Made by a program: the position numbers and the translations under genes
Assembly: GCA_016219005.1 (NCBI GenBank)
Contig: JACRCN010000031.1
Span: forward strand, 1-64,000
DNA length: 64,000 nt
Direction of reading: 5' to 3'
Origin: Deltaproteobacteria bacterium
GTDB lineage: Bacteria > Desulfobacterota > Desulfobacteria > Desulfobacterales > SpSt-501
In this document: one piece after another, positions 10,924 through 30,560 of the stretch
Layout: the number at the start of each line of letters is the position of its first letter
Numbering within the stretch: the stretch's first letter is position 1
Notes under the pieces: generated by a model
Told to the model about the DNA's origin: nothing
The model's input: only the letters and a program-made list of their open reading frames with translations
Database searches by the model: none

Positions 10924-10966
10924 CAAGGGTGATGAAAAACAAGCATCGGGCCGTCGCCCGAGGCGA
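10924..10966. repeat. partial copy of long-palindrome repeat
   Basis: This stretch matches about 40 bases of one end of the element at 30414-30556, including AACAAGCATC and GGCCGTC, with several mismatches. It lies 53 bases after the S9 peptidase stop. Confidence 0.55.
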
Positions 10967-11046
10967 CATTGGCTCAAAGCTCAAATAAAAAACCCCATCC
11001 GCTCAGCTTTCAGCTTCGAGCTTCCAAAAGCTGCCGCTGCCCTATC

Positions 11047-12501
11047 TCAAAGCGGATTGTCCAGGATATGGACACTGTCGGATCCGTCGTCGGCGGCCGC
11101 GAGATCCAAGCTTCCATTTCCGTCCCAATCCCCTGCCGCCAAGGCTCTGACTCCGAGCTGGGCGCCAATGGCGCTCAACGACGAAAAACTGCCCACGCTG
11201 TTATTTCTAAGGATGGCTACGGTGTTACTGCTAAAATTGGCCACCGCCACGTCCAGGTTGCCGTCGCTATCCCAGTCCCCTGAAGCCAGCGCCGTGACCC
11301 CCGTCTGACCGTCGATGGTGCTCGACAGCGTGAAGGCGCCCAAACCGTCGTTTTTCAAAATCACTACCGTGCTGGCGCCGAAGTTCCCGACCGCGAGGTC
11401 CAGGTCGCCGTCATTGTCTAAATCGCCTGCGATCAAGGCCCTGGCGCCTACCAGGCCCGACACCGTGCTTTCTGTCAGGAAAATTCCTGTGCCGTCATTT
11501 TCGAGAATGGCCAGCGTGTTGGCCCCAAAATTCGCCGCCGCAAGGTCCAGGTCCCCGTCATTGTCCCAATCCCCGGAAACCACGGCGCTCACCCCTTCGA
11601 GGCCGGACAGGGTTCCGAAAAACGTGAAAACGCCCGCCCCGTCGTTTTTCAGAATAGTGACGCTGTTGGAGCCGAAATTCGCAACGGCCAGATCCAGGTC
11701 GCCGTCGCCGTCCCAGTCTCCTGCAGCCAGTGCCCTTGGACCTGTCTGACCGGTTATCGTGCTCACAACCGTGAAAACGCCGCTGCCGTCGTTTTCCAGG
11801 ATCGCGAGGCTGTTGGAGCCGAAATTGGCCACCGCCAGATCCAGATCGCCGTCGCCATCCCAATCGCCGGCTGCCAGCGCTGTGGCGCCCACCTGGAGGT
11901 CAATCGTGCTGGACACGGAAAAGCTGCCGGCACCGTCATTCATCAGAATATTGACCTGATCGGCGCCGAAATTGGCCACCGCCAGGTCCACATTCCCGTC
12001 GCCATCCCAATCACCGGCCGCCAAGGCAATGGCATCCGTCTGACTGGGGACTGTCTGCACGTCAAGAAATACCCCTGTGCCGCCTCCCGTCTCGACTAAA
12101 AACCGAAAGACGTAGGGCGGATCCAAGCTCGCTCCGCCGGTTGAGGTGAGCGATGGGGTCAAGGTCACCTCGATCTCTTCGCCCGGTTTAAAATTTCCGT
12201 CCGGTTCAAAACTCAGGGACGTGGTACCGCCCCCGGCGTAGGTGCCGGAAAGCTTGCCTGTCTGCGACCCGAACACTGTGAAACTTCCGTCCGAAGCCGA
12301 GTTCATGTTCATGTCGAAGGTGGCGGAAACCACGCTGACGGCGCTGGCCGAGCTTTCGTTGGCCAAAGGAGCGACGCTGACCACCCCGGGCTGGTCCTGG
12401 GCCTGTTGATCCGAGCTTGACGTAGACGAGAATCCTCCGCACGCCCAAACCCCAAACACGCAACAGATAGCCGCCATGCGCATCCACCGGAGCTGCTTCA
12501 A
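11047..12501 (-). CDS. lipoprotein with Ig-like domain and seven VCBS/FG-GAP repeats
   Basis: The 484-residue protein starts with a lipoprotein signal (lipobox ending at Cys21). A Ser-rich linker follows, then an SbsA/Big-like beta-sandwich (about 45-130), then seven repeats of about 46 residues (about 160-480). Each repeat carries a GDWDGDGDLDLAVANFG-like motif with the DxDxDG calcium loop and should form one blade of a beta-propeller. Such surface proteins often bind glycans or mediate adhesion. The ligand is unknown. The repeats are similar at DNA level, which hints at recent duplication. Confidence 0.85.
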   Translation of the reverse strand: MKQLRWMRMAAICCVFGVWACGGFSSTSSSDQQAQDQPGVVSVAPLANESSASAVSVVSATFDMNMNSASDGSFTVFGSQTGKLSGTYAGGGTTSLSFEPDGNFKPGEEIEVTLTPSLTSTGGASLDPPYVFRFLVETGGGTGVFLDVQTVPSQTDAIALAAGDWDGDGNVDLAVANFGADQVNILMNDGAGSFSVSSTIDLQVGATALAAGDWDGDGDLDLAVANFGSNSLAILENDGSGVFTVVSTITGQTGPRALAAGDWDGDGDLDLAVANFGSNSVTILKNDGAGVFTFFGTLSGLEGVSAVVSGDWDNDGDLDLAAANFGANTLAILENDGTGIFLTESTVSGLVGARALIAGDLDNDGDLDLAVGNFGASTVVILKNDGLGAFTLSSTIDGQTGVTALASGDWDSDGNLDVAVANFSSNTVAILRNNSVGSFSSLSAIGAQLGVRALAAGDWDGNGSLDLAAADDGSDSVHILDNPL

Positions 12502-12668
12502 TCGGCACCACCTTTCCTGGTTGTCGGTTGCACGAAGGTCTTCGGAATCGTACGGAAACTATACCACGCACCGTCTCGAATAGTCAGCCTAATTTTATAG
12601 ATGGGCGGATCCATCGTGGGGCTGTATTAACCATTAATTCTCGAAAGGCATGCGTTCAGCCCTGCCCC

Positions 12669-13106
12669 TTATCTCCCCCGTGGGCGAGGTTGCATGATTC
12701 CGCCCTCTCTGATTGGTACATTATCGTCGAGCCGCTCGCCTCTCCTTTCATACCTTCTTAGCGTCTGCCTGTAAGGGCCGCCGGTGTAATCATACACAAT
12801 ATTATCGTCCGCGTCCCCGGATGCGATGCCGGCGCCGGGGCTACTCCCGGCCTGTCCGCCCCCTTGATCCTGGTTTCCCTGCTGCGGATTCAAGCTTTCA
12901 CTTGCAGGCTGTCGAGGGATGGTCGGTTCCGGTTGTGCCGAATAATCCATGATATCGATCGATTTGGCCGTTTGCGGGGGTGGTTCCTGGGTTATATGCG
13001 TCACCCCTTTGGAATCCTTCCAAGTGTAAATACGATCTGCGTATCCCCCTGTTGCGCAACAAACCAGGAGCCCAAAGGTTATCAGTGCCGTTTTGAATAG
13101 TTTCAT
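12669..13106 (-). CDS. exported DUF4124-domain protein
   Basis: The 145-residue product has a signal peptide (about 1-23) followed directly by a DUF4124 module (DRIYTWKDSKGVTHITQEPP), a short beta domain common in delta- and gamma-proteobacterial envelope proteins. The remainder is Pro, Gln, Gly and Asp rich and probably disordered. The ATG at 13106 has AGGAG seven bases upstream and overlaps the stop of the ORF before it (ATGA). The function is unknown. Confidence 0.85.
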   Translation of the reverse strand: MKLFKTALITFGLLVCCATGGYADRIYTWKDSKGVTHITQEPPPQTAKSIDIMDYSAQPEPTIPRQPASESLNPQQGNQDQGGGQAGSSPGAGIASGDADDNIVYDYTGGPYRQTLRRYERRGERLDDNVPIREGGIMQPRPRGR

Positions 13107-13318
13107 GTTGCTGCTCCTAATCCGGGATCCAAGGGCCATTCAGCGAAATTATAGACATCGCTCAGAGATCTGTCATCAGCGGACCACTCTCCGGCAAACG
13201 ACCGCCACTGCCGGACCAGGGTCTCGACGATCCACTCTTTGCCCGTGTAGTCGGCAGCCGCACCCTGCGTCCCGACCGGAAACTGGTCCCGATAATCGGC
13301 ATCAAAGTAGATTTTCAC
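13103..13318 (-). CDS. small hypothetical protein, possibly a fragment of a larger gene
   Basis: The 71-residue ORF has a GTG start, and its stop overlaps the next ATG (ATGA), which supports coupling. The same frame stays open upstream to the stop of the phosphatase gene, and the extra residues (LPSGERLSFNPPL) read like protein. The phrase VGTQGAAADYTGKEW loosely recalls the end of HlyD-type adaptor proteins, so this may be the tail of a lost gene. It is weakly supported. Confidence 0.4.
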   Translation of the reverse strand: MKIYFDADYRDQFPVGTQGAAADYTGKEWIVETLVRQWRSFAGEWSADDRSLSDVYNFAEWPLDPGLGAAT

Positions 13319-13408
13319 CGCGAACCGGTCCTGGGGCGCCTTGAGCGGCGGGTTGAACGAAAGCCGCTCGCCGCTCGGCAGCGGCTGTCTCTGCCGCTTA
13401 CACGATCA

Positions 13409-14437
13409 TCATTGCTCGAAAGCGAAGATGCGCTTCCAATCGTTCTTCATGCTGATGACCGCCCAGCCCTGGTTCTTGGCCAGGTCGTACAGCGCCTGGG
13501 GGAAAGCGCCGACCTTGGTTTCGGGCAGCCCCTGGGCCGGTCCGTAGGCATACTCGCGCTTCGCGTCGTCGTGCAGCACGAGCATCGCAAGCCGCGCACC
13601 GTCGCCGGCCTTGGTGTATTCCAGCATCTGCCGGTCGCCGGTCGAGTTGCCGAAGGCTGCGTACGGCCGGCGGCCGATCATGAGGTGGATGCCCTCGGGC
13701 TTGCCGGCGTTGTTGTCGTTCAGCAGCAGCCTCGGTTCCTTGGTCAGGAACGGCTTGCCGCTTTTGTCGTAGCCGTACTTCGTGCCGCCGGCGGTGCCGA
13801 CCACCTGTTCGGGCGGGATGCCGTAGGTCTGCTCCGAGTACACCCGCACGAAATCCTGGCCGCCGCCGGTGACGATATAGGTCTTGTAGCCGTTTGTGCG
13901 CAGGTATTTCAGCACTTCCTGCATCGGCAGGTAGGTCAACTCGGTGTAGGGCCTTTTCCAGCGGGGGTCCTTGGCCGTTTCGAACCACTTCTTCACTTCG
14001 GCGTTGAACGTCTCGACCGACATTCCGGTGAGGGTGGCCGCGAGGATCTTCTCGAGGTCCTTCATCGGGAGCTTCGCCATCGCCTCGCGGTTGCCGGACA
14101 GCACCGTCTTGAAAGGCTCAACGTTCTTGAGCTCCGGTTTCTCCTTGACCACCGCCGGAACCCGCTCCAGGCAGTACATCACCTGTGAGTACATCGGGTG
14201 CGAGACCCACAGCGTGCCGTCCTGGTCGAAGGTGGCGATGCGTGCCTCGGGCGGCACAAACTTGGGGTTGCCTTGCGTGGTGGTCGCCTGCACGAACTCG
14301 ACAATCGCCTGCTTGGAGGGGCCGTCGTTCCACGAGGGCAAGGGATCGGTCTGGGCATGGGCGCGCGCGCCCACGGCGAGGAGGGCGCCTATAGCAAAGA
14401 TGCGGGCAACGCTGATAAAGAAGGGAATTGGCTTCAT
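13409..14437 (-). CDS. exported HAD-superfamily phosphatase
   Basis: The 342-residue protein has a signal peptide (1-29) and a haloacid-dehalogenase fold. Motif I is FDQDGTLW with nucleophile Asp71 and acid Asp73. Motif II is IVTGG, and motif III/IV is FGNSTGDRQML. The long insert after motif I is a cap domain. Its likely role is a periplasmic phosphomonoesterase. It lies downstream of the first arylsulfatase on the same strand, suggesting scavenging of phosphate and sulfate esters together. Confidence 0.88.
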   Translation of the reverse strand: MKPIPFFISVARIFAIGALLAVGARAHAQTDPLPSWNDGPSKQAIVEFVQATTTQGNPKFVPPEARIATFDQDGTLWVSHPMYSQVMYCLERVPAVVKEKPELKNVEPFKTVLSGNREAMAKLPMKDLEKILAATLTGMSVETFNAEVKKWFETAKDPRWKRPYTELTYLPMQEVLKYLRTNGYKTYIVTGGGQDFVRVYSEQTYGIPPEQVVGTAGGTKYGYDKSGKPFLTKEPRLLLNDNNAGKPEGIHLMIGRRPYAAFGNSTGDRQMLEYTKAGDGARLAMLVLHDDAKREYAYGPAQGLPETKVGAFPQALYDLAKNQGWAVISMKNDWKRIFAFEQ

Positions 14438-14763
14438 GGGTGGTTTCCTCCTGAAATGGTTATAGCGGGTGGCCCCTTCGGCCCGCCCGCATAATCATAT
14501 TACACGCTTCTCGCCGAAATAGTCGCCCTTAGCACTTTTTTTAACATCTCCAGGATCGTGCAGAGGTTGTATGACGCTGGCACTTGCAGCGGCGGGGGCT
14601 TTTTGTGCGACTCGAGCCCTTTCAGCCACAACTGCCGGCAGAGAGAAATCAATTACCAGCCGTATTGTGCAACATGGCTGCCCGACAGGATCCGTCGCAG
14701 TGAGCGGACAGGGTTGAATGGACGGGCGGCGATAGTAAGCCGCCCGCCGTGTTGAATGTTCGA
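14438..14763. other. intergenic stretch without a gene
   Basis: This 326-base gap between the phosphatase start and the sulfatase stop holds a terminator-like hairpin at its right end. I see no convincing coding frame or known repeat in the rest. Confidence 0.5.
14722..14747 (-). terminator. hairpin after the first sulfatase gene
   Basis: A GC-rich stem ACGGGCGGC / GCCGCCCG(C) with an 8-base loop begins 17 bases after the sulfatase stop. No U-tract follows, so it may be a transcript-stabilising hairpin rather than an intrinsic terminator. Confidence 0.5.
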
Positions 14764-16452
14764 TTAGTTGCCTGGCTTGTTCTTGATCGCCGCCTCAATC
14801 TGCTTCTTTACCGCATCCAGGTTGAAGGAGGCCGGGTCCTGCATCGGCGGGTAGTCAATCGCCGTCATGGCGAGCTTCGCGACCTGATGCTGGACAAAGA
14901 CAAACCGCCAGAACTCGCGGGCATAGAAATCGTTCATGTAACCTCCGCCCAGATTGTTGAGGGTCTGCCCGCCGATCGACGGCGTCCGCTCGAACGGATC
15001 TTGACGGATGTTGATCATGGTGGGCATGTCGGTCGTCACCTTCGCGCCGGGCCAGCCCTCCGGCTGCTGGTAGAACTGGTACTTGAAGTTATCAATGCGA
15101 ATAGCGCCCAGGTGTGGCCCGCCGAAGTAAAAGAATTCATGACGCGCGGATGGCGCCTTGCCCTGCAACAGGTCCAGCTGGTTGTAGCCGTCAAGGTGAT
15201 TCTTGTAAGTCCGGTCACCGAGCTTTACCCCTTTCAGAAGTTGGTCGGTGATGTTGGGGTTGCCGGCGGCAGCCACCAGGGTGGGGAACCAATCGAGTGC
15301 GGAGAAGATACCGTTCTCAACCGTGCCCGGCTTGATTTTGCCCGGCCAACGGGCGATGCACGGCGCGCGGAAACCTCCTTCCATTACTGTGCCCTTGGTG
15401 CCCTTAAACGGCGTCATGCCACCGTCCGGCCAGGTGAACACTTCGGCCCCATTGTCGGTGGTGAAGACGACGATGGTGTTATCGGCCTCGCCAATGTCCT
15501 CCAGGTGCTTCATCAGGGCGCCGATGCAGTCGTCCATCTGCGCCATGCCGGCTTCCTCGAGACCGTAGTTGGTCTCACTGTTCATCATCGCCTGGTATTT
15601 TGGCGCTAGGAATGTCCACACGTGCATGCGCGTCGTGTTGTGCCAGACGAAGAAAGGCTTGCCGTCCTTCTTGGCCTTGTCCATGAAGTCGGTGGAAGCC
15701 TTGACGAGCACCTCATCGAACGTTCCCATGTCGTATTTGGCTTTCGGTGAGATGTCATGCATGTTCGGCACGTTGGTCATATTTGCGTAGGGCGCCAACG
15801 GGCCTTCGTCCACGATCTTCTGTTTACCGACCCTGCCCCAGCGCGGCTGCTCGGTGGGGTCGTCCGTGCCCGTAGCCCAGGTATGCAGCAAGTTGCGGGG
15901 GCCGTACTTGTCGCGGTAGGCCTGATCATTCGGGAACGAGTACCAGTAGGGGTCCGACATCGCGTCGAGGTGGTAGAGGTACCCGAAGAACTCATCGAAG
16001 CCATGCAATGTCGGCAGGTACTTGTTCAGATCGCCGAGGTGGTTTTTGCCGAACTGGCCCGTGGCATAGCCCTGCGCTTTCAGCGCCGCGGCGGTCGTTG
16101 CGGCCTTATCCGGCATGCCCACGTCTGCGCCGGCCTGGCCAACGGTCGTCAAACCCGTGCGGAGCGGAATCTCGCCGGTGATGAAACTCGCCCGACCGGC
16201 CGTGCAGCTCGCCTCGGCGTAATAGTCGGTGAAAAGCATGCCCTGCGCGGCAAGCTTGTCGAGATTCGGCGTCTTGCCGGACATGATGCCCCGGTGATAG
16301 GCGCCGATGTTGAACCAGCCGACGTCATCGCCCATTATGACAAGGATGTTGGGTTTCTTCCCTGTTGCCTGTGCATCGGCAGGCCCTGCGGCCATTGCCA
16401 GCACAGCTGCCACGGCAAACAGTACAGTCGATGTTTTCAGGACAGATTTCAT
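14764..16452 (-). CDS. exported arylsulfatase
   Basis: The 562-residue protein has a signal peptide (1-28) and a type I sulfatase fold. The metal site is IMGDDVGW (Asp42-Asp43). The formylglycine motif is C83-T-A-G-R87, an accepted CxAxR-type variant, followed by ASFITGE. Later metal-site residues sit in VVFTTDNGAE. It would hydrolyse sulfate esters in the periplasm after Cys83 is converted to formylglycine; the maturase is not in this window. The ATG at 16452 has AAAGGAG upstream. Confidence 0.93.
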   Translation of the reverse strand: MKSVLKTSTVLFAVAAVLAMAAGPADAQATGKKPNILVIMGDDVGWFNIGAYHRGIMSGKTPNLDKLAAQGMLFTDYYAEASCTAGRASFITGEIPLRTGLTTVGQAGADVGMPDKAATTAAALKAQGYATGQFGKNHLGDLNKYLPTLHGFDEFFGYLYHLDAMSDPYWYSFPNDQAYRDKYGPRNLLHTWATGTDDPTEQPRWGRVGKQKIVDEGPLAPYANMTNVPNMHDISPKAKYDMGTFDEVLVKASTDFMDKAKKDGKPFFVWHNTTRMHVWTFLAPKYQAMMNSETNYGLEEAGMAQMDDCIGALMKHLEDIGEADNTIVVFTTDNGAEVFTWPDGGMTPFKGTKGTVMEGGFRAPCIARWPGKIKPGTVENGIFSALDWFPTLVAAAGNPNITDQLLKGVKLGDRTYKNHLDGYNQLDLLQGKAPSARHEFFYFGGPHLGAIRIDNFKYQFYQQPEGWPGAKVTTDMPTMINIRQDPFERTPSIGGQTLNNLGGGYMNDFYAREFWRFVFVQHQVAKLAMTAIDYPPMQDPASFNLDAVKKQIEAAIKNKPGN

Positions 16453-16683
16453 TTTCTTTCTCCTTTCGTTATTTTCGCCGCATTCAACTTCTCGCGGCCT
16501 TTGATTGACCTCAGCTCTTGAGACATTGCCAAAACCTGCTGAGTTGCTCCTCAATTAAGCTCTTTGTCCATATAGTACTTGGCGGCCGTGAGGCTGACGC
16601 CGACTCTAAGACCCTCTTCATCACCATTGCCGATGCGATCATCAATCAAATTGCCTTATTTGCATTCATGGTAAACTGCTTCC

Positions 16684-17214
16684 CTATTGTTGAGGCGCTA
16701 TAGGGTTCCGGTTTTCATTTTTATGCTTGAGCGCAATAGCGGGCGAGATGTAAGTCCCACCTCTCAGAACCGCCTCCACTGCGGCAAGGAGGTTGGTGGA
16801 TGCCGTTCGCTTGAGCACGAAACCTTTCGCCCCTGCCGCAAAGCACTCATCCACCACCGACGGATCGTCATGCACGCTCAGCATGATGGCCTTGAGTTCA
16901 GGGTTCAATCTCTGAAGCAGCCTGGCAATGTTCTCCCCCGAAGATACCGGGAATGACAGATCTGCAAGGACGAGATCAAGCCGGGTGCCGGAAACGGCTT
17001 CGGTAAGAGAGGGTTCGTCGGCCACCATGAGCAACGCAGCCGCCATTTCCCTGAGGAGAAGACGAACGACTCCCACAAAGGCTGGGTGGGTCTCGGCAAG
17101 AAGTATTCGTTTGGTTGGCAAGGGTCGCCTCGGCCGTTCAGGTGGAGAACCGTTTGAGGAGTTGGTGTCTGCCGGAGGATGATGGGAGGGTACAGCAACG
17201 CGGTGAAAGGTCAA
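16684..17214 (-). CDS. receiver-domain protein lacking an output domain
   Basis: The receiver domain is NarL/FixJ-like. The phosphorylation Asp is in VLADLSFP, the Ser switch in IMLSVHDD and the conserved Lys in FVLKRTAS. The acidic pocket keeps only one Glu (LLAETHP). After the receiver it ends with 20 unrelated residues (KNENRNPIAPQQ) where a LuxR helix-turn-helix should follow. The only upstream start is a TTG at 17214, and about 35 unstructured residues precede the domain. It may be a phosphate sink or a decayed full-length regulator. Confidence 0.65.
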   Translation of the reverse strand: MTFHRVAVPSHHPPADTNSSNGSPPERPRRPLPTKRILLAETHPAFVGVVRLLLREMAAALLMVADEPSLTEAVSGTRLDLVLADLSFPVSSGENIARLLQRLNPELKAIMLSVHDDPSVVDECFAAGAKGFVLKRTASTNLLAAVEAVLRGGTYISPAIALKHKNENRNPIAPQQ

Positions 17215-17231
17215 CTAGGAGAAATCCTAGT
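17214..17231. promoter_or_regulatory. palindrome between two response-regulator genes
   Basis: Perfect 7-bp arms ACTAGGA and TCCTAGT surround GAAA. The right arm runs into TTTTAC. A related TCCTAG-G-TTTTAC stretch occurs at 38574-38586, upstream of the second sulfatase unit. This is a candidate binding site for the NarL-type regulator. Confidence 0.5.
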
Positions 17232-17259
17232 TTTACGGACTATTTTTTCTAGCAAAAAA

Positions 17260-17901
17260 TCAGGGTTCTGTAATGCCTTGTTTCACGGCGTACCGGATCA
17301 GTTCCGCCGCTGATTTGATGCCGAGGTCTTCCATCATCCGGTACTTGTGGTATTCTACTGTCTTTGTGGAGATATTTAGAATGGCGGCAATTTCTTTTAC
17401 GGAATGACTCTCTGCCAGCAACTGCAGCACCTCACGCTGCCGTGAGGAAAGGCAGATGACCGTATCGGCCCCCGATTGGCAGCCGGATTGATAGGAATTC
17501 AGGAGTTTTCCAGCAATCAGAGGCGTTACATAAGTCCTTCCCTTTAGCCCCTCCCGGATGGCTGTGATAAGCTCGTCAGGGGCGGAGTTCTTTAAAACAT
17601 AGCCCGCGGCGCCTTCCTTGAAGGCGCTCACCGCATAGGCCACATCAGGGTGCATTGTGAGAAATACAACCTTGGTCTCGGGATGCACTTTTTTAATCTG
17701 CCGCACGGCTTCTATTCCGTTAAGCATCGGCATGGAAATGTCGGCTACAATGAGATCGGGGCGGAGCTTTTCGGCAGCGGCTACAAGTTCACGACCGTCC
17801 TCGACGACTCCGGCAATGTCAAAGTCCGCGTTGAGCAGCCGCTTCAGCCCTTCGGTGAAAATTTTATGGTCGTCGGCTATCAGCAGCCTTGGCTTGGTCA
17901 T
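17260..17901 (-). CDS. NarL/FixJ-family response regulator
   Basis: The 213-residue protein has an N-terminal receiver (phospho-acceptor Asp in LIVADISMP, Lys in YVLKNSA) and a C-terminal LuxR-type helix-turn-helix (about 145-205, with SSRQREVLQLLA and STKTVEYHKYRMME). It overlaps the 3' end of the histidine kinase gene by 38 bases, so they form a cognate pair. A target may be the palindrome at 17214-17231, but that is inference. Confidence 0.94.
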   Translation of the reverse strand: MTKPRLLIADDHKIFTEGLKRLLNADFDIAGVVEDGRELVAAAEKLRPDLIVADISMPMLNGIEAVRQIKKVHPETKVVFLTMHPDVAYAVSAFKEGAAGYVLKNSAPDELITAIREGLKGRTYVTPLIAGKLLNSYQSGCQSGADTVICLSSRQREVLQLLAESHSVKEIAAILNISTKTVEYHKYRMMEDLGIKSAAELIRYAVKQGITEP

Positions 17902-20101: not shown

Positions 20102-20212
20102 CCCGATTATGCTTTTTGACGGCAACCTATGCAGCAGATCGCCAATCTTGATGGCGGCCCATAAATACGTGATTATAGACTTTTGTGCAAGATATCAGTT
20201 GGATAGTGTTTC

Positions 20213-20359
20213 AACAGGTTGTTGAAAAACCGCGCCGGAGGCCGGGAACCGGCGTTGTGCGGCTTTTGCAAATGCTTGCATATTATGAATGTGCTGCGCT
20301 TTCCAAAACGCCGCTCGTCCTGGTTGACGGCCGGATGGTTGCTTTTCAACCCCCCGTTA
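20213..20359. repeat. long imperfect-palindrome element, full copy
   Basis: About 147 bases that fold on themselves almost end to end. The terminal arm is AACAGGTTGTTGAAAAAC, and the inner arms include GCGTTGTGCGGCTTTTG and CCAAAACGCCGC. It is about 85% identical by eye to the inverted copy at 30414-30556. It lies between the histidine kinase and the exported-protein gene and carries no convincing coding frame. Confidence 0.75.
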
Positions 20360-20431
20360 AGTGTTATTTTTGCCATTGATCAGTCGAGATTATATGCTAA
20401 ACTCCGCGTGCAAACTTGAATGGAAGCGAGC

Positions 20432-22205: not shown

Positions 22206-22287
22206 AAATCCCCCCGGCCCCTTTTTCGAGGGAGGACTGGCGCCGGTATCCTCTTATTCCCCCTTTAGCAAAGGGGATGGGGGATTT
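22206..22287. repeat. C-run/G-run hairpin repeat
   Basis: Outer arms AAATCCCCC and GGGGGATTT enclose an inner hairpin CCCCCTTTAGCAAAGGGG. A shorter relative occurs at 50655-50682. It lies between the cytochrome b and Rieske genes and may attenuate or stabilise the message. Confidence 0.6.
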
Positions 22288-22313
22288 GCGAATCGACTCC
22301 CCCGGAAGTTTAG

Positions 22314-22853: not shown

Positions 22854-22877
22854 ATTCGTTTTCGGATTAGACTTTTT

Positions 22878-25181
22878 ATGTTTCGCTGGAAACTCATAGG
22901 GTTCCTCGCCACGGCGCTGATCGTGATCGCGATACCGCTTTCCATCGTGAAGTATCATTACCGCATGGCAGTCCCGCTGGCTCGCAATGCCTCCGTGTTT
23001 GTCGGCAGCGAGAAATGCCGCGCCTGCCACCAGCCCGAATACGAACTGTGGAAAGGGTCCAATCACTACCATGCCATGGAGGTCGCCACCGAGGCGAGCG
23101 TGCGCGGCGATTTCAACAACGCGACCTTTGAACACGCCGGGCTCGTCTCCCGGTTCTTTCGCAAGGACGGCAAATTTTTTGTCCACACCCAGGGACCGGA
23201 AGGCCGGATGGGGGATTTTGAGGTCACTCACACCTTCGGCTGGAACCCCCTCCAGCAGTACCTGATTCCCTTTCCCGGCGGCCGGATGCAGTGCCTGCCC
23301 ATCGCCTGGGATGTGAAAGCCAGGCGCTGGTATCATCTCTACCCGGACCAGGCGATCGACCCGAAGGACTGGCTGTATTGGACCAACGCGGCGCAGAACT
23401 GGAACGGGATGTGCGCCACGTGCCACTCCACCAACCTCAAGAAGAACTTCAACGTCCAGACCGACACGTATCAGACCACCTGGTCGGACATCAACGTCGG
23501 CTGCGAGGCCTGCCACGGCCCCGGATCGAGGCATGTGAAGTGGGCCGAGCTTCCCGACATGGCCCGGCCGACGGTGCAAAACTTCGAGCTTCCGGTACGC
23601 ACCTCCAAGCTGAGGTCCCGCGAGGCCGTGGAACTGTGCGCACCGTGCCATTCCCGCAGGGCGATCCTGGGGGATTACACCCACATCGAGCCCGACCTGC
23701 TGGACACCATGCTGCCGAGCCTGCTCACCCGGGATCTGTATTTCCCCGACGGCCAGATCCTGGAAGAAGTGTATGCGTACGCCTCGTTCACTCAAAGCAA
23801 GATGTACGCGCGCGATGTGCGCTGCAGCGATTGCCACAACGTGCACAGCATCAAGCGCGTGAAGGAAGGCAACAGCCTCTGCCGGCAGTGTCACCGGGGA
23901 AGCGACTACGACACCCGCCAGCATCATTTCCACAAGATGAAGGATGAAAAGGGCGAGCCCATCAAGTCCGCCGACGGCCGGGTGCTGTTCGAAGTCGGGA
24001 CCGGGGCCGAGTGCATCCACTGTCACATGCCCGGCCGCCATTACATGGGGGTTCATTACCGGCTGGATCACAGCATCCGGATCCCCCGGCCCGACCTCAG
24101 CATCAAGCTCGGCGTGCCCGATGCCTGCACCCGGTGCCACTTCGACAAAACCAACCGGTGGTCCGACGAAACCATCACCAAGTGGTATGGGCCCGGACGC
24201 CGCCCCCATTACGGCGAGATCATCCACGCAGGCCGCAACCGGCAGCCGGCTGCCGCCGAGAGCTTGATGCGCCTGGCCGAAGACCCGCTCTACCCGGTGG
24301 TCGTGCGCGCAACGGCAGTGGAATTGCTGGCTGGCTATCCCGACGAGGCCGTCGCCGCGGCCCTTGAACGGGCGCTGATGGACGGCGAAGCCCTGATCCG
24401 CCGCACGGCCGTAAACCATTTGCCGGCCGCCAACCCCCAACGCCACGTCCGCCTGATCGCGCCCCTGCTTTATGACCCGGTCAAGGCGGTGCGCACCGAG
24501 GCCGCCGCCCGATTGGCAGGTCCGCCGAGCCGCTTGCTTACGGACGACCAGCGCCGCGTGTTCGCGCAGACGCTCAAAGAGTATGTCGCCTCCATGGAGT
24601 ATTCCGGGGATTTCGCCTTCGGCCGTTTCAACCTGGGAAACCTATACGTCGCCCTTGGCCAGCCGCAACAGGCCATAGACAACTTCAAGGCGGCCATCAA
24701 AATCGACGACCTGTCTTACCCGGCCAAGGTGAACCTGGCGATGCTCTACAACCAAATGGGCCGGAACGCCGAAGCTGAAACGCTGCTGCGCGAGGTCGTC
24801 AGGGCCTATCCCGAGCTCCATGACGTTCAGTATTCGCTGGGGCTGCTGCTGGCAGAGGAAAAGAAGTATATCGAGGCCGAACGGCACCTGGCGCTCGCAG
24901 CCCGCGGCATCCCCGATGGATCCCGGGTGCACTACAACCTCGGGGTTCTCTACGACTACCTGCGCAAAGACCGGCAGGCCGAAGTGGCTTTGAGCCGGGC
25001 CGTCGAGATAGACCCGGACAACATGGACTATCTTCAGGCACTGGCCCAGCACTACCTGAGACGGGATAATTTCGCAGCTGCCGGAAGGATCGCCGACCAG
25101 ATGATCGCGCGGCATCCCGCCGACCGCAAGGGGCCGGAGCTGAAGGAATTCGTCAGGCGAAGGGTGCCGGGGGCAAATTAA
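22878..25181 (+). CDS. octaheme c-type cytochrome with HEAT and TPR repeats
   Basis: The 767-residue protein starts with a single membrane anchor (about 5-25) and then eight CxxCH heme sites: CRACH, CATCH, CEACH, CAPCH, CSDCH, CRQCH, CIHCH and CTRCH. After residue about 450 come HEAT-like helices (about 470-560), then at least four TPR units (about 575-760). The heme part resembles cytochrome c554/NrfA-related multiheme proteins with extra His residues as distal ligands. It begins 24 bases after the Rieske gene. It could replace cytochrome c1, or carry electrons further to a periplasmic acceptor. Confidence 0.93.
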   Translation: MFRWKLIGFLATALIVIAIPLSIVKYHYRMAVPLARNASVFVGSEKCRACHQPEYELWKGSNHYHAMEVATEASVRGDFNNATFEHAGLVSRFFRKDGKFFVHTQGPEGRMGDFEVTHTFGWNPLQQYLIPFPGGRMQCLPIAWDVKARRWYHLYPDQAIDPKDWLYWTNAAQNWNGMCATCHSTNLKKNFNVQTDTYQTTWSDINVGCEACHGPGSRHVKWAELPDMARPTVQNFELPVRTSKLRSREAVELCAPCHSRRAILGDYTHIEPDLLDTMLPSLLTRDLYFPDGQILEEVYAYASFTQSKMYARDVRCSDCHNVHSIKRVKEGNSLCRQCHRGSDYDTRQHHFHKMKDEKGEPIKSADGRVLFEVGTGAECIHCHMPGRHYMGVHYRLDHSIRIPRPDLSIKLGVPDACTRCHFDKTNRWSDETITKWYGPGRRPHYGEIIHAGRNRQPAAAESLMRLAEDPLYPVVVRATAVELLAGYPDEAVAAALERALMDGEALIRRTAVNHLPAANPQRHVRLIAPLLYDPVKAVRTEAAARLAGPPSRLLTDDQRRVFAQTLKEYVASMEYSGDFAFGRFNLGNLYVALGQPQQAIDNFKAAIKIDDLSYPAKVNLAMLYNQMGRNAEAETLLREVVRAYPELHDVQYSLGLLLAEEKKYIEAERHLALAARGIPDGSRVHYNLGVLYDYLRKDRQAEVALSRAVEIDPDNMDYLQALAQHYLRRDNFAAAGRIADQMIARHPADRKGPELKEFVRRRVPGAN

Positions 25182-25247
25182 CAGGGTGGTGAATATCGGC
25201 GCCTCAAGCCGGGAACCGGCGTTGGGTGGCTCCTGTAAATGCTCACA
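25180..25247. repeat. partial copy of long-palindrome repeat
   Basis: The first half of the element is present, including AACAGGGTG, GGGAACCGGCGTTG and GTAAATGCTCACAT, starting inside the stop codon of the octaheme cytochrome gene. The other half is missing or too diverged to see. Confidence 0.6.
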
Positions 25248-25343
25248 TCCGGAAGGGAATTATGCCGCAACGGCGAGGCCGAACTGTAACTGATTCATAA
25301 AACTTTTAATGCCTGGATGCGGGAAGGCGCATCCGAGTCTTCC

Positions 25344-26125
25344 TCAGGGCAGCAGGCCGGCGTTTGCGAGAGCGGTTCGGGCGGCTTCTGCGCCCATTCG
25401 TTCGACGTGAGGCCTGAGCATCTGGAACACCGTCGGACTGAGAAACCGGATGTCGCCCGCCCAGGGGAAGTCCGGCAGGGGTGTGTTGCTGCAGGGTGCC
25501 CACCCGTAGGTCGCCAGAGCCACCGGCTGGGTCTGGAAAATTGCCACGATGATGTTGGCGTAGGGGGTCGCCTTGTCTTGGCCGACCGGGAGCAGGTTGG
25601 CAAACCCCGACAGCACGCTCGTCCTGGTGTAGAGCCCATAGCCTTTCGTGACCACTGCATTTTTGCCTATCTCAACGCAGGCGTCCTGCTGCCACGTGCG
25701 GGTGTCGTAGCTGCTTAGGAGATGAGCGCATCCAGCCGGTTTTCTTCGGCGGCTTGTCTCAGAAAGGCCTTGAGATCACCCGGCATCCACGCGTTGACGG
25801 CGCTAAGAATGCCGGTTGCCATCGATTGCTTCCAGTCCGCAGGGGCATTGACCGCTAGGGGGATGAACGTAAAGTTGCCGCGGGCTTTCAAGTCATTTTC
25901 TATAGTCCGGGCGATGTAATCCGGAATGTTCCAATCGACAGTGTAAACCTTGGTGAAGCTGTCAAAGCGCAACGACCCCACATCGATGTGGGTCATCTGC
26001 GGCTCCAACACATTCAGAATCCCGATGCGGGCGCCCGGCGGAAGCTGCATGCGAACCGGTTGAGAACCCGCACAACCCAGTGCACTCACCACCATCAGAA
26101 TCAGCGCCAGGCGATACACACGCAT
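25344..26125 (-). pseudogene. lipoprotein gene interrupted by a frameshift
   Basis: Codons from the ATG at 26125 (lipobox ending at Cys18) read a lipoprotein until a TAA at 25715-25717. The next frame continues straight on with protein-like sequence (SSYDTRTWQQDACVEIG, then VTKGYGLYTRTSVL) to a TGA at 25344. Adding one C in the CTCC run near 25718 restores one frame of about 260 residues. The joined protein is a periplasmic lipoprotein with beta-rich sequence; I do not recognise its family. It is either a real frameshift or a single-base sequencing error. Confidence 0.75.
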
Positions 26126-26157
26126 GTTCTTCCTCCCAACCCGGACGGGCCTGGACC

Positions 26158-26195
26158 GAATTTGAAATTCGAAGCACGAAATCCGAAACAAATTC
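26158..26195. repeat. TTCGAA-type short inverted repeat
   Basis: Arms GAATTTG and CAAATTC flank a stretch of GAAGCACGAAATCCG. A related AT-rich block with TTCGAA units is present at 62634-62694. Both are in intergenic DNA. Confidence 0.4.
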
Positions 26196-26249
26196 AAACT
26201 GCCATTTAATATCGGAACTTTAAATTCTTGCCATGCAATGCCGGGGCAT

Positions 26250-26924
26250 TCACTTCGATTTCTTGGACACGTGCATTCCCACCAGCCAGGAGACCAGGAT
26301 CACCAGGTAAAGTTGTCCGACCACGGCTTCCAGGTTCGCAAACGCCCGGGCAACGGGCGTGCTCGGCGTAATGTCGCCATACCCTACCGTGGTGATGGTC
26401 ACGAGGCTGAAGTACCTCAACAGCTCCGGCGTGGTTTGGAGCGTGCCGGTCGGCAAGTTGAATGAGCCGGGCTGAGCGTTCTCCAACACGCCATAAAGCA
26501 GGGACCACATCAAGGCCATGAGAAGATAGGCCACGATGGCGCCGGCAATGAGATCGGTGCTTACGTCTTGCTGCGAGAAGATGTGGTGCAGGATGGCGGC
26601 GATGATGACGGCCATGAACGCCGTGCCGCAAAGCGCGCCGGAAATTTCCACCCACTGGGCGGTAAAGAAGGGTTTAATCCAGAACAATACAATCGCAGGC
26701 ACGGCCAGGCTGACGGCGGCCGCCGCCAACGCCCTGCTGCGGCTGAAGGAGTAAGCGGAATAAATAAAAATCGCCGTAAAAAACAGAGTCTCCATAACGC
26801 GGAGCTTGGAAAATTCCGCAAAGAGAGGGGAAAGCGTCAACAGGCCGAGCAGCAGAACCAAGAGCCGCATGAACCTGCCTTTCGGCATGGTTCCAGGCAG
26901 CCTCAGATGTGATTTTCGGGTCAT
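26250..26924 (-). CDS. two-pore-type potassium channel family protein
   Basis: The 224-residue membrane protein has about five N-terminal helices (residues 20-145) and then a pore loop and final helix. The selectivity filter is TVGYGD at 179-184, preceded by a pore helix (LLRYFSLVTITT). There is no RCK/TrkA domain. The layout suits an Ion_trans_2 (bacterial K+ channel) protein without cytosolic gating. It lies between the frameshifted lipoprotein gene and a set of small exported proteins on the same strand. Confidence 0.9.
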   Translation of the reverse strand: MTRKSHLRLPGTMPKGRFMRLLVLLLGLLTLSPLFAEFSKLRVMETLFFTAIFIYSAYSFSRSRALAAAAVSLAVPAIVLFWIKPFFTAQWVEISGALCGTAFMAVIIAAILHHIFSQQDVSTDLIAGAIVAYLLMALMWSLLYGVLENAQPGSFNLPTGTLQTTPELLRYFSLVTITTVGYGDITPSTPVARAFANLEAVVGQLYLVILVSWLVGMHVSKKSK

Positions 26925-27019
26925 GATCGCCGGCTTTCAATGCTGTGCGGTGTAACGATCCGCTCCGGGATACCGCTTGGGCTTCTTTACTGCCGATGCC
27001 CCCGTTTTGGGATCCAATC

Positions 27020-27304
27020 TTATTCGCCCGATGTCACATTCATGACGCCGTTGTCGATGACAACCGAGTCCTTCGGGTTGACCCTCACCGTCTGGCCGGT
27101 GCTGAGCAAGGTCATCTCGCACCCATTAAAACAGATCTCGACCTTAGCATTTTCGATGACCCTGTATTGGCTGCCGTATGGCCGCCCGGATTCCTTTATT
27201 TGCAATTCATACGCCTGCGAGTCCGTATTCTGCAGCGTGGCTGCAGAGATAGCTAAAGGACCGGCAAGAGTCAGTATCATCAGAATGATGATTGATTGCT
27301 TCAT
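27020..27304 (-). CDS. small exported protein
   Basis: The 94-residue product has a signal peptide (about 1-21). A beta-rich domain with two cysteines follows (ICFNGCEM), which may form a disulfide. GGAGG lies eight bases upstream of the ATG. No family is recognised. It follows the repeat protein on the same strand and may belong to the same transcript. Confidence 0.7.
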   Translation of the reverse strand: MKQSIIILMILTLAGPLAISAATLQNTDSQAYELQIKESGRPYGSQYRVIENAKVEICFNGCEMTLLSTGQTVRVNPKDSVVIDNGVMNVTSGE

Positions 27305-27353
27305 AACCCTTTCCTCCAAATCGATGCATTTCAATGGCTTCAGGAGCGTCGGC

Positions 27354-27887
27354 TCAGAAGCTGGATTTCTCGCCCGGGTCTCCAATGGTGGCTGCTTCGC
27401 CGGGGTCGCCGATTCCTGCCGCTTCGTCGGGGTCTCCGACGCCGGCCTGCTCCCCGGGATCCCCGACGGTCGCCTGTTCTCCGGGATCCCCGATCGTGAC
27501 CCGTTCAGCGGGATCCCCGATGGTGGCCTTCTCGCCGGGATCTCCAATCCGCGCACGCTCGCCGGGATCCCCGATTCCCGCCTTCTCCCCGGGATCCCCA
27601 ATGGTGGCCTGCTCGCCGGGATCCCCGACGGTCGCCTGTTCTCCAGGGTCCCCGATCGTGGCCTGCTCGCCGGGATCTCCGATCGTGGCCTGCTCTCCGG
27701 GGTCTCCGATGGTGGCTTTCTCATCCTTATCCGTATATCCGGCAGCCAGGCAAACCCTGTCAACCGCCAGCGCTGGAAACCCAGGGTATTCAGGGGCCGT
27801 CGGGGGATAAGCACGGAGTCCGGGTGCGATCAAAACGGTCAAACAAAGCAGCACGATGGAGATGAGTATCGAACGGGACGTTGGCAT
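27354..27887 (-). CDS. exported protein with thirteen nine-residue repeats
   Basis: The 177-residue protein has a signal peptide (about 1-27), a short Pro/Tyr/Ala segment, then 13 consecutive nine-residue repeats with consensus KATIGDPGE (residues about 57-173), ending KSSF. GDP is kept in all 13 copies and the following Gly-Glu in most, while the first residue varies (Gln, Lys, Arg, Ala). AAAGGG lies eight bases before the ATG at 27887. The repeat block has no predicted enzyme function; Asp and Glu at regular spacing could bind cations or a surface. It is not collagen, because Gly does not recur every third residue. Confidence 0.85.
   Translation of the reverse strand: MPTSRSILISIVLLCLTVLIAPGLRAYPPTAPEYPGFPALAVDRVCLAAGYTDKDEKATIGDPGEQATIGDPGEQATIGDPGEQATVGDPGEQATIGDPGEKAGIGDPGERARIGDPGEKATIGDPAERVTIGDPGEQATVGDPGEQAGVGDPDEAAGIGDPGEAATIGDPGEKSSF
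27369..27719. repeat. tandem 27-bp repeats inside the gene
   Basis: Thirteen 27-base units encode the nine-residue repeat. The DNA units are similar but not identical (a recurrent core is CGGGATCCCCGAT), so they have diverged since duplication while keeping frame. Confidence 0.85.
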
Positions 27888-27950
27888 GGTTTTCACCCTT
27901 TCAGTCCGTCATGGCGGGGGTGCTTCGGCCCCCTGATTTCTCACACGCAA

Positions 27951-28454
27951 TCAGTTGGAAGAGAAGCGGTTGTAGACTGCCTGGGCGGCCTGGCGAACTC
28001 CCGGGTCCGTTTCGTTTTGCGCGGCGCTCTGCAGCGCCTGAAGGGCCGGCGCCGAGTCGACTCCGACGACGTTCAACCCCTGCACCGCCGCCCGGCGGAC
28101 CTCAGGGCTGCTGTCGGAGTTCAGTGCCTGGATCAAGGCCTGAATGGGGGATGCGGAAGGGAAGGCGGCAGAGCCCAGCGCCAGTGCGGCCGCGCTGCGC
28201 ACGGCGGGGTTCGGGTCGCTCGACAGGACGCCGATCAAGCCTTGGACCGCCGAATCGGAGTCCTGCCCGAACACAGCCAGGTCCCGGGCGGCGTTGATCC
28301 GGTCCTGCGGGCTGTTGGAAGGGTTGGCCAGGATGCCAAGGGCTTTTTGCACATCGCCGGCGGATTGCGGCCGCGCCCCGGTCGCAGATGCCAGTATAAC
28401 TGCCCCCATGAACAGCGCCGAAACAGCCCACTTGCGGAAACCGTTTGTTTTCAT
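27951..28454 (-). CDS. exported HEAT-repeat protein
   Basis: The 167-residue protein has a signal peptide (about 1-30) and four HEAT or PBS-lyase-type helical repeats. The repeats read as DRINAARDLAVFG, NPAVRSAAALALG, SPEVRRAAVQGLN and DPGVRQAAQAVY. Such proteins act as binding scaffolds in the periplasm; the partner is unknown. It is adjacent to three other small exported proteins transcribed in the same direction. Confidence 0.85.
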   Translation of the reverse strand: MKTNGFRKWAVSALFMGAVILASATGARPQSAGDVQKALGILANPSNSPQDRINAARDLAVFGQDSDSAVQGLIGVLSSDPNPAVRSAAALALGSAAFPSASPIQALIQALNSDSSPEVRRAAVQGLNVVGVDSAPALQALQSAAQNETDPGVRQAAQAVYNRFSSN

Positions 28455-28570
28455 GTCTGCAACTCCTTAAACCGATCTCCTCCAGTTCCGAAATGCAGCT
28501 TTACGGGCATTGAGATTTCTGCAATTATTAAACCCGATCGGAGGGGTGCTGCTTCTCCAGAGGGTCTATG

Positions 28571-28891
28571 TCACGGCACGGAAATTACCCTGCCGTTCGA
28601 GCAGTCTACATCATCCCGGCCAAAGGCTTTGTCGGAGGAGGCCTGGCGGTAGTTGACATCGATTTTGCCGCTTCTGCTGTAGACGGGCACCTGCTGACCC
28701 TGGTTTATCCAGCCGCTATAAATTTGTTCCTTTGGATTGCCGTCCATGTCCAGCTCACGAACGAGAACGTGAGTATTTTCCATGCCCGCATAAAGATAGC
28801 AGGGCGCGCTCTGACCCTGAGCGGGGGCGTCGCCCATCAGACCCATCGCCGCCAAAAAGATTAAATTTGGCAGTACCCATGAAGTCTTCAT
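28571..28891 (-). CDS. small exported protein
   Basis: The 106-residue product has a signal peptide (about 1-27). Its domain reads APCYLYAGMENTHVLVRELDMDGN and holds two cysteines. GGAG precedes the ATG at 28891. The family is unrecognised. Short length, secretion and orientation match its neighbours at 27020, 27354 and 27951. Confidence 0.7.
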   Translation of the reverse strand: MKTSWVLPNLIFLAAMGLMGDAPAQGQSAPCYLYAGMENTHVLVRELDMDGNPKEQIYSGWINQGQQVPVYSRSGKIDVNYRQASSDKAFGRDDVDCSNGRVISVP

Positions 28892-29052
28892 TTGTATTTT
28901 TTCTCCTTCCCGTCGGGCAGTTGCATACGTACGCAACCATGATAACCACTTCGTCGCGGGGATCAACTGTGCGATCTGCCTCGGCCGCCACAAATCCGGA
29001 CGACCCATTTGCCGGCTTCACGGTCGGTATCGAGGTCCTGCAAGCTCAGAAT

Positions 29053-30393
29053 TTATCGATTGCCCCATAAAAACAGGGCCGCCACGTAGGCGGCCGACAC
29101 GGCCAACTGGCATACCGTCAACGGGATGCCGTAGCGCATGAACCTTGTAAATGTAACCGATTTTCCATTGGCCGCGCAAATCCCAACGCTGACGATGTTG
29201 GCCGACGCACCGATGAGCGTCGCGTTGCCTCCCAGGGTCCCGGCGAACATCATGGCCACAAACACCGGGAGCGATGACGCCGGCCAGGCAGTGAAGGCCG
29301 GGCCCAGCGCCTCTTCGGGCACCAGTTGGGCCACCACGAAATAGCCCTTGAGCATGAGGATCATCGCGGCAACCAGCGGAATGTTGGCCAGCAGACTCGA
29401 GCCGAAGCCCACCACCATCAGCACCATGAGGGCGACCAGCAGCAGGTTGATGCCGAACCATTTATTGAAGCCGAGGGACAGACTCTGGATCACGCCGGTC
29501 TTGTTGAACGCCTCCACCAGGCAGAACATGCTCAGAAGGAAGATCAGCGTCTTCCAGTCGATGTCCTTCAGCACCTTTTCGATCGGTTCGATTTTGGCGC
29601 CGTAGACCACGAGCAGCGCCAGGCTGGCGCCGATGATGGCCACGGCGGGCGGGACGATATGCGTCGGCAGATCCTCGCCGAAAATGAACAAAATGATCAT
29701 GGCGGCCAGCACCAGCAGGGAAAGGGCGGCCATGAAAGGTCGCACCAGGGGCTTCGGTTTCAGGTTCGCGGGAAGGGTGCGCTGCACATGCCACACGTCC
29801 TTCATGACCACCGGCAGGAGGGGTACCAGCACCAGGATGTTGAGCAGCCCGCCCAGGCTCACCTTCTGCAGGTACTGGCCGAACGTCATGCCGATGGAGC
29901 TTCCGACCAGAAACGTCGCCGGGTCCCCGATCAGTGTGAGCAATCCGGCCGAGTTGCTGATGATGGCGGTCACCACCATCGGGCCCACAAAGTCCACATC
30001 GAGTTCCTTCGTGATGCGGATGATGATGGGAGCGAGCAGGATCACCGTGGTGGCATTCGGAAGAAACGCGCAGAGCACGGACACCAGCGCAACCACCCCC
30101 AGCAGGAAGCGCTTGCCGCTGCCATTCGTCGCGGACAGAAACCGGATGCCGATCTGCTCGAAAATGCCCGTCGGCTCCAGGGTGCGGGCAACCACCATCC
30201 CCCCGAAGAGAAGCGAGAGCGGGCCGCCGGCCGCCTTGACGGCGCTCAGGATGTCATGCTGGGTGAATATCCCGAAGATGATCAACGTGCTCACCCCCAG
30301 CATGGCGGCCACCGTCATATCGATCACGTTGATGGCGATCGCGAGAATGACTCCGGCGAAAACAGCGAGAATGACAATGTGCTGCAGGTCCAT
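29053..30393 (-). CDS. ArsB/NhaD-superfamily permease
   Basis: A 446-residue protein of about eleven membrane helices. The conserved halves of the ion-transporter superfamily are visible: FLPNATTVILLAP and SNSAGLLTLIGDPATFLVGS in the first half, and ANIPLVAAMIL and GNATLIGASANIVSVG in the second. This is typical of NhaD, ArsB and P-protein-like carriers that move anions or Na+/H+. The substrate cannot be told from sequence. The start lies just downstream of the repeat element at 30414. Confidence 0.9.
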   Translation of the reverse strand: MDLQHIVILAVFAGVILAIAINVIDMTVAAMLGVSTLIIFGIFTQHDILSAVKAAGGPLSLLFGGMVVARTLEPTGIFEQIGIRFLSATNGSGKRFLLGVVALVSVLCAFLPNATTVILLAPIIIRITKELDVDFVGPMVVTAIISNSAGLLTLIGDPATFLVGSSIGMTFGQYLQKVSLGGLLNILVLVPLLPVVMKDVWHVQRTLPANLKPKPLVRPFMAALSLLVLAAMIILFIFGEDLPTHIVPPAVAIIGASLALLVVYGAKIEPIEKVLKDIDWKTLIFLLSMFCLVEAFNKTGVIQSLSLGFNKWFGINLLLVALMVLMVVGFGSSLLANIPLVAAMILMLKGYFVVAQLVPEEALGPAFTAWPASSLPVFVAMMFAGTLGGNATLIGASANIVSVGICAANGKSVTFTRFMRYGIPLTVCQLAVSAAYVAALFLWGNR

Positions 30394-30413
30394 AAAAAAT
30401 TCTTCCCGGGTTT

Positions 30414-30556
30414 AACAGGGTGTTGAAGAACAAGCATCAGGCCGTCAGCCAAGGCGTGCGGCGTTTTGGAAAGCGCAGCATATTCATTGTGAGCATTTAC
30501 AAAAGCCGCACAACGCCGGTTCACGGCCTCAGGCGCAGTTTTTCAACGCCCTGTTG
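30414..30556. repeat. long imperfect-palindrome element, full copy
   Basis: About 143 bases bounded by AACAGGGTGTTGAA and TTCAACGCCCTGTT. Inner arms are GCGTGCGGCGTTTTGGAAA and TTTACAAAAGCCGCACAACGC. It is the inverted counterpart of the copy at 20213-20359, with about 85% identity by eye. It sits just upstream of the permease gene and downstream of the binding-protein gene. Confidence 0.8.
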
Positions 30557-30560
30557 AAGA

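What the first reader, a model, noticed from the sequence alone, without database searches (positions are those of the whole stretch)
10924..30556. A family of long imperfect-palindrome elements
Full copies at 20213-20359 and 30414-30556 are inverted relative to each other and about 85% identical by eye. Each is about 145 bases, bounded by AACAGGG...TTGAA arms, and folds along almost its whole length. Partial copies are at 10924-10966 and 25180-25247. No coding frame is present. They sit next to gene ends (one starts in a stop codon, one is just before a permease start). This looks like a MITE or REP-like mobile hairpin family.
Basis: partly seen in the sequence, partly recalled or inferred. 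Interest (0 to 1): 0.7.

Follow-up and report, generated by a model that had tools for sequence, protein, structure and literature searches.

The report
Widespread hairpin MITEs sharing a core
The palindromes are copies of a small parasitic DNA element that has no enzyme of its own; inside it lies a folded hairpin core that recurs in very many bacteria and is carried by more than one kind of transposon end, for a purpose still unknown.

Summary
In detail: both full and both partial copies are present, with a further fragment at 62541-62578. They belong to a high-copy family of ~145-bp MITEs (family A) with end repeats CAGGSYGTTGAAAAAC and a 4-bp YTAR target duplication, identical on both sides in 57 of 115 distinct elements from public genomes against 16.4 in shuffles. 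YTAR is the IS5 target. IS5-family elements with similar ends (13-15 of 16 bases) occur in three MITE-bearing genomes and in one genome of the window's order; none was found in the window's genome. REP-like is not supported.

The surprise is the ~72-nt core: stems covary strongly while a skeleton and mismatches stay fixed. In the same genome this core also sits in a second family (B) with ends GAAGCYRTCTCAAAAAT and a 2-bp duplication. A core-only model matches 132 of 291 genomes of the class; the core is also in Pseudomonadota. So one structure-conserved hairpin is carried by at least two transposon-end types. Its function is unproven; no strand bias and few G-U pairs favour a DNA-level role. 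No clean empty site was found.

The parts
30416..30553 (+). Full family-A element (core reads on + strand); end repeats 30416-30431 and 30538-30553
   Evidence: (model R1 63.1 bits)
30449..30516 (+). Hairpin core of that element
   Evidence: model R2 67.2 bits, E 5.6e-14
30412..30415 (.). Left target remnant TTAA; right counterpart TTGA at 30554-30557 (3 of 4 identical)
   Evidence: sequence
20215..20356 (-). Full family-A element (core reads on - strand)
   Evidence: (47.8 bits)
20252..20323 (-). Hairpin core of that element
   Evidence: model R2 61.9 bits, E 1.2e-12
20211..20214 (.). Left target remnant TCAA; right counterpart TTAA at 20357-20360 (3 of 4 identical)
   Evidence: sequence
25178..25248 (-). 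Half of a family-A element, overlapping the stop codon of ORF 22878-25181
   Evidence: 86% to consensus positions 80-150, E 4e-19
10926..10965 (+). Fragment of a family-A element
   Evidence: 88% to consensus positions 6-45, E 8e-9
62541..62578 (-). Further fragment, not in the finding
   Evidence: 87% to consensus positions 13-50, E 9e-8; also pair I4

Best explanation
The repeats are non-autonomous transposons (MITEs, family A) moved in trans by IS5-family DDE transposases of the NF033581 kind, which act on the ~16-bp end repeats CAGGSYGTTGAAAAAC and insert at YTAR, duplicating 4 bp. The element has no gene. Its interior is an asymmetric hairpin core whose stems keep pairing while their sequence changes, and the same core rides on at least one other, differently cutting end type (family B, 2-bp duplication). 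Shown: the family, its ends, the two duplication lengths, IS5-family elements with similar ends elsewhere, the covariation, the shared core. Inferred: that an IS5-type enzyme did the moving in this genome (lost, unassembled or not recognised), and that the core acts as folded DNA bound by some widespread factor that helps its carrier persist or amplify.
For: Ends and copy number. 4-bp duplication: 57 of 115 against 16.4 shuffled (maximum 27 of 500), no other length from 1 to 8 stands out; same trend in G018, 11 of 34 against 4.2, maximum 10. YTAR is the IS5 motif (PMC10359306, passages). IS5-family elements: L223 complete, 1324 bp, 16/16 matching ends CAGCCTGTTGAAATTC, CTAG on both sides; L205, L206, L251 one end each, 15, 14 and 15 of 16 bases like the MITE end; the L205, L206 and L223 proteins exceed the NF033581 cut-off, as does the L251 hit. 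Covariation: A3 score 0.229 against 0.082 shuffled and at most 0.061 slid; A4 0.583 against 0.207 and at most 0.172. Same core with other ends and 2-bp duplication in the own genome and with other ends on Halomonas and P. cerasi plasmids.
Against: No transposase of the four families tried (PF13358, PF01609, PF05598, NF033581) was found in the own genome. In the own genome the duplication alone is not beyond the shuffles (4 of 23 against 1.5, maximum 5). 56 of the 60 IS loci examined did not fit, and the only complete element that fits has 13 of 16 end bases. No clean empty site: 210 joined-flank queries gave 1 hit with a 22-base gap, and two plasmid copies gave none. In A4 two of five measures (number of pairs with double changes, number of pair types) are not clearly beyond shuffles (48 and 408 of 500).
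Confidence: 0.78

Rival explanations
1. The core is a transcribed RNA element, as proposed for ERIC and NEMIS: read-through transcripts fold and change mRNA stability or termination, and selection on the RNA keeps the stems.
For: Strong covariation with unpaired conserved blocks looks like a structured RNA. Related claims exist for ERIC and Correia elements (PMC2229807, PMC10969869, passages).
Against: Between tandem genes the core points either way, 11 same and 12 opposite, with a crude gene caller. G-U pairs are scarce, 20 of 707 cells leaving out the fixed G-T pair (summed). No Rfam family at gathering level in 5 sources and none at the core in 6 others at E up to 1.
Confidence: 0.2
2. The stems stay paired because replication slippage copies one arm onto the other (quasi-palindrome correction), without any function of the hairpin.
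For: The element is an imperfect palindrome, and such correction changes both arms at once, which looks like covariation (recalled mechanism, not tested).
Against: Position 57/87 of A3 is unpaired in all 45 sequences (43 A-A, 1 A-G, 1 G-A) and the GSA/GA loop persists; simple copying should erase such mismatches. Part of the motif conservation is by selection of sequences, see the full report.
Confidence: 0.25
3. Families A and B share the core only because one arose from the other recently in the same genome by nesting and end exchange; the core itself is neutral baggage.
For: A and B copies lie in or beside each other in the genome (L319, L314, L338).
Against: A and B cores of this genome differ in most stem positions and share the skeleton, so the split is not recent. 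The core with still other ends occurs on Halomonas and P. cerasi plasmids (81.1 and 49.9 bits).
Confidence: 0.2
4. A REP/RAYT family mobilised by a Y1 transposase.
For: Four Y1_Tnp hits in the genome; hairpin-forming intergenic repeats.
Against: Terminal inverted repeats with a 4-bp duplication family-wide; 145 bp and not a 20-40-bp unit.
Confidence: 0.03

Closest known systems
IS5 family (NF033581; DUF772 + DDE_Tnp_1)
   Same: YTAR 4-bp duplication and end repeats 13-15 of 16 bases like the MITE ends
   Different: The MITE encodes nothing; no complete element with exactly these ends was found; own genome has no hit
Bacterial MITEs such as Correia/NEMIS, RUP, and Chunjie of Geobacter uraniireducens
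   Same: 100-250 bp, inverted ends, duplication, intergenic, foldable (passages of PMC2229807 and PMC10969869)
   Different: Here one covarying core is shared by families with different ends and duplication lengths. The Chunjie paper was not held, so its ends were not compared
ERIC (E. coli)
   Same: Similar central hairpin (GGAG-CTTAC-loop-GTAAG-TGA); 16 of 2000 shuffled hairpins align as well
   Different: No hit of either model with default filters; unfiltered only 7 bits (E 0.12) and 9.5 bits over 23 positions (E 0.054) on 688 bases
Integron attC sites
   Same: Works-like comparison only: structure kept over sequence, fixed mismatches marking one strand (recalled)
   Different: No integrase link tested or seen; different boxes
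Pseudomonas fluorescens intergenic repeats R0-R200
   Same: Abundant intergenic, some MITE-like; R178 has an internal inverted repeat (PMC2718517, passages)

Membership tests
MITE | Terminal inverted repeats | tested here: met
   CAGGSYGTTGAAAAAC at both ends
MITE | Target-site duplication | tested here: met
   4 bp, 57 of 115 against 16.4; in the own genome alone only 4 of 23, within shuffles; window copies 3 of 4 bases
MITE | Short, non-autonomous, many copies | tested here: met
   ~145 bp; 40 of 40 scored candidates; 147 of 150 core candidates
MITE | Mostly intergenic | tested here: met
   Of 42 distinct loci, 23 between tandem, 8 convergent and 7 divergent genes, 3 at edges, 1 inside an ORF; crude gene caller
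MITE | Mobilised by an identified transposase in trans | tested here: inconclusive
   Similar ends on IS5-family elements elsewhere; none in the own genome
IS5-mobilised element | 4-bp YTAR duplication | tested here: met
   motif from PMC10359306
IS5-mobilised element | Ends identical to a resident IS5-family element | tested here: not met
   No resident element in the own genome; nearest elsewhere 15 of 16 (one end seen) or 13 of 16 (both ends)
REP/RAYT | No target duplication; ~20-40-bp unit with GTAG | tested here: not met
   4-bp duplication and 145-bp unit; the GTAG motif was not looked for
ERIC | Homology to E. coli ERIC | tested here: not met

The most novel reading that the evidence does not exclude
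The ~72-nt core is an independent, structure-conserved DNA module, recognised as a folded strand (fixed mismatches and unpaired blocks, freely covarying stems, as in attC sites) by a factor shared by at least Pseudomonadota and Desulfobacterota. It has been taken up by at least two transposon systems that cut differently (4-bp YTAR and 2-bp duplication) because it helps whatever carries it to spread or persist.
Probability: 0.33. Interest if true: 0.85.

Novelty: new variant of a known kind. Interest (0 to 1): 0.6.

Why it matters
Bacterial MITEs are usually read as decayed IS ends around filler. Here the interior covaries like a structured RNA or an attC site, is found by a core-only model in 132 of 291 genomes sampled from one class and in Pseudomonadota, and sits inside two families of one genome with different ends and different target duplications. 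That makes the old question of what, if anything, small palindromic repeats are selected for directly testable, and it names a candidate enzyme family for family A.

Tried and rejected
REP/RAYT: not supported, given the 4-bp duplication. IS630 as mobiliser of A: of G000 and G018 only G018 has a DDE_3 gene, without the ends. DDE_Tnp_1 genes of G018 (4 hits): ends do not match. A first impression of a TA duplication for A gave way to 4-bp YTAR once lengths 1-8 were tested. ERIC homology: not supported by the models. Phages: two 21-base matches at E 0.4 only; E. coli: no match. Solo ends as signs of long elements: 5 of 387 end hits were solo and no long element was recognised; their ORFs were not run against families. 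Family-B ends near the transposase loci held: the best (L256, 1 mismatch) faces away from the transposase; no boundary recognised. Empty sites: 210 queries, 1 gapped hit; two plasmid copies; only the record itself or short partial matches. Literature: the six literal end sequences occur in 6 held papers, none relevant by title (listing only); searches listed nothing that describes this core, but most subscription papers are not held, so absence from print is not claimed. The Chunjie paper is not held. One search classified ends from loosely placed cores and is superseded. One search was a script error, redone.

Dropped before counts, and selection: the 96 of 120 elements 'with core' rest on a loose pattern (L147 looks spurious). 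A3 takes 45 of 54 dereplicated elements out of 95 that passed a motif score on GCGSAG and TGAGCATT (8 of the UBA2245/SV3 type and L079 left out; elements over 146 bp left out earlier), so conservation of those two motifs in A3 is partly by selection. A4 takes 34 of 40 extracted cores from 41 candidates (L006, L016, L174, L195, L197, L292 left out, L030 not extractable), cut at CAAGGC and AACGC by pattern, so conservation of those outer motifs in A4 is partly by construction. The pairing statistics do not depend on these motifs. One search drops 2 of 45 elements cut by contig ends.
Full report
OBSERVATION. The 30412 copy folds far better than shuffles (z -7.7), the 20211 copy less so (z -2.9). 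A DNA search of the own genome (5.24 Mb, 106 contigs) scored 40 of 150 first-look candidates, and 40 places match at E below 1e-36. The end-repeat pattern with up to 2 mismatches has 119 + 120 hits against 4 + 4 for the reversed pattern. Places unite to 68; 44 of the 100 ends that one search listed lie outside those, and of 40 regions fetched around them 34 show a family-A match among their two best, 1 a family-B match and 5 none. A core-only model matches in 147 of 150 scored candidates at E 0.01 or better, a lower bound. Among 58 searched genomes (the own one included), 13 match the family-A consensus.

ANATOMY AND TARGET. Elements are about 145 bp, bounded by CAGGSYGTTGAAAAAC. The last three carry these ends around unrelated interiors. 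Comparing left and right flanks for lengths 1-8, only length 4 shows duplication: 57 of 115 against 16.4 in shuffles (maximum 27 of 500), consensus YTAR. In the window's genome it is 4 of 23 against 1.5 (maximum 5), not beyond the shuffles, so decay is assumed there. The window copies have TTAA/TTGA and TCAA/TTAA.

WHO MOVES IT. YTAR is the highly conserved duplication motif of IS5 (PMC10359306, passages read). I searched 34 genomes for the IS5-type domain DUF772 and examined 30 loci, then 291 genomes of the class for NF033581 and examined 30 loci. Four of the 60 fit. P. mendocina EF27 (L223) has a complete 1324-bp element with 16/16 matching ends CAGCCTGTTGAAATTC (13 of 16 like the MITE end) and CTAG on both sides. 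Tepidimonas aquatica (L205), Thiohalobacter (L206) and G135, a genome of the window's order (L251), show one end each beside the transposase, near a contig edge, with 15, 14 and 15 of 16 bases like the MITE end. Several other DUF772 elements have looser versions of such ends, for instance CAGAGTGTGTAAAAAC with 3 mismatches. The L205, L206 and L223 proteins are about 48-56% identical and score over the NF033581 cut-off. The own genome has none of the four transposase families tried. Family A is therefore assigned to IS5-type mobilisation on good but indirect evidence; its partner here is lost, unassembled or unrecognised.

THE CORE. In an alignment of 45 dereplicated elements from Pseudomonadota and Desulfobacterota, made without any structure (A3), the inner stems change on both sides while staying paired: 91.8% of cells paired, covariation score 0.229 against 0.082 in shuffles (0 of 500) and at most 0.061 when slid. 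One inner position is unpaired in all 45 (43 A-A, 1 A-G, 1 G-A). Restricting to the ~72-nt core and adding copies with other ends (A4, 34 sequences) gives 0.583 against 0.207 (0 of 500) and at most 0.172 slid. There the counts of pair types and of pairs with double changes do not clearly exceed shuffles (408 and 48 of 500 reach them), while doubly changed cells do (181 against 65, 0 of 500). What stays fixed is a skeleton, CAAGGC, GAAAAAGCGSAG, TGAGCATT, AACGC, with a G-T pair in 31 of 34 and a GSA/GA internal loop; parts of this skeleton were used to pick or cut the sequences, so its conservation is partly by selection, unlike the pairing. G-U pairs are scarce (20 of 707 cells), and cores between tandem genes point either way (11 same, 12 opposite, crude gene caller). 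Both favour DNA over RNA without proving it.

THE SAME CORE WITH OTHER ENDS. Model R1, built only from CAGG-ended elements, also found elements in the window's genome with quite different ends. Twenty-three such family-B elements have ends close to GAAGCYRTCTCAAAAAT and a 2-bp duplication: 13 of 23 against 6.6 (maximum 11 of 500); lengths 3 and 4 gave 0. Among further copies it is 21 of 43 against 7.5 (maximum 16 of 1000), and 13 of the 21 are non-palindromic, so this is not a mere TA preference (by coordinates at least two elements are in both sets). Classifying 73 more core hits of this genome by their ends gave B 45 with both ends and 2 with one, A 13 and 4, a third type C 5 and 1, unclassified 3. 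A Halomonas megaplasmid and a P. cerasi plasmid carry the core with other ends, in Halomonas GCTTTGTACGAAAA (81.1 and 49.9 bits). Conversely, four CAGG-ended elements with unrelated interiors (L076, L088, L095, L105) score 30-35 bits with R1, about the same on either strand, and have no hit with the core model at E up to 10. Ends and cores are therefore separable in both directions. The enzyme of family B was not identified.

SPREAD. The core model matches 132 of 291 genomes of the class at E 0.001 per genome, 59 of 123 genera, with at most 17 candidates scored per genome. Of 30 loci looked at, one per genome, many show B-like ends and two (L372, L387) have A ends with identical YTAR on both sides.

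WHAT IT IS AND IS NOT. It is a MITE family by its ends, duplication, size, copy number and position, and not a REP family. ERIC, tested with both models, does not belong on this evidence, although its central hairpin is similar. Rfam did not report it in the sources searched.

MECHANISM, STEPS MARKED. Transposase from an IS5-type element in trans (inferred); action on the 16-bp ends (inferred from end similarity); insertion with 4-bp YTAR duplication (shown for the family); decay in place (shown: diverged copies and fragments); retention of the folded core by selection (inferred from covariation with fixed mismatches; rivals are RNA-level selection and quasi-palindrome copying). Recent movement was not shown: no clean empty site turned up.

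Noticed in passing
L088, L107, L161 (Planctomycetota); L076, L143 (Desulfobaccales); L105 (Thermodesulfovibrionia); L095 (Ignavibacteriae): The CAGG end repeats enclose unrelated interiors, some resembling other known intergenic repeats (CATTCTGAGCGAAGCGAAGAATC, CCCGCGAAGGCGGG).
   Followed up: partly
L078, L093, L097, L100, L123, L126, L140, L163 (Pseudomonas); L197 (Halomonas): Copies with ~15-base extra stretches (such as TCGTGCGCGAGTCCGA or AATACCGATGGCGGCCCC) at a few recurrent places of the hairpin.
   Followed up: no
L055:8295-8394, L058:1812-1911 compared with L065:1719-1865: G018 copies lacking the central hairpin; L058 and L065 share both flanks, one short, one full: slippage, strain mixture or assembly artefact.
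   Followed up: no
L271:109-232: An E. coli ERIC copy matches Rfam V_AS5 (RF02818) at 46 bits, below its gathering score of 96.
   Followed up: no
L319, L314, L338 (own genome): Family-B elements lie within or beside family-A pieces.
   Followed up: no
L055:4813, L055:10160, L062:1485 (G018): Three copies share the same left flank CAAGTTCTTTAA, next to CACGAAGGACACGAAG-type repeats: insertion into another repeat family.
   Followed up: no
L036, L037, L038 (G038): Longer elements with ends GAGGCTGTGGATAAAC, close to the CAGG ends, with other interiors.
   Followed up: no
L032 (own genome C16): A Y1 transposase ORF (418 aa) with a diverged family-A copy about 0.9 kb away; probably chance.
   Followed up: partly
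window 27330-27734: Array of 27-bp tandem repeats inside ORF 26940-28652.
   Followed up: no
window 11087-12044: 147-bp spaced repeats inside ORF 11047-12501(-), explained by FG-GAP repeats.
   Followed up: yes
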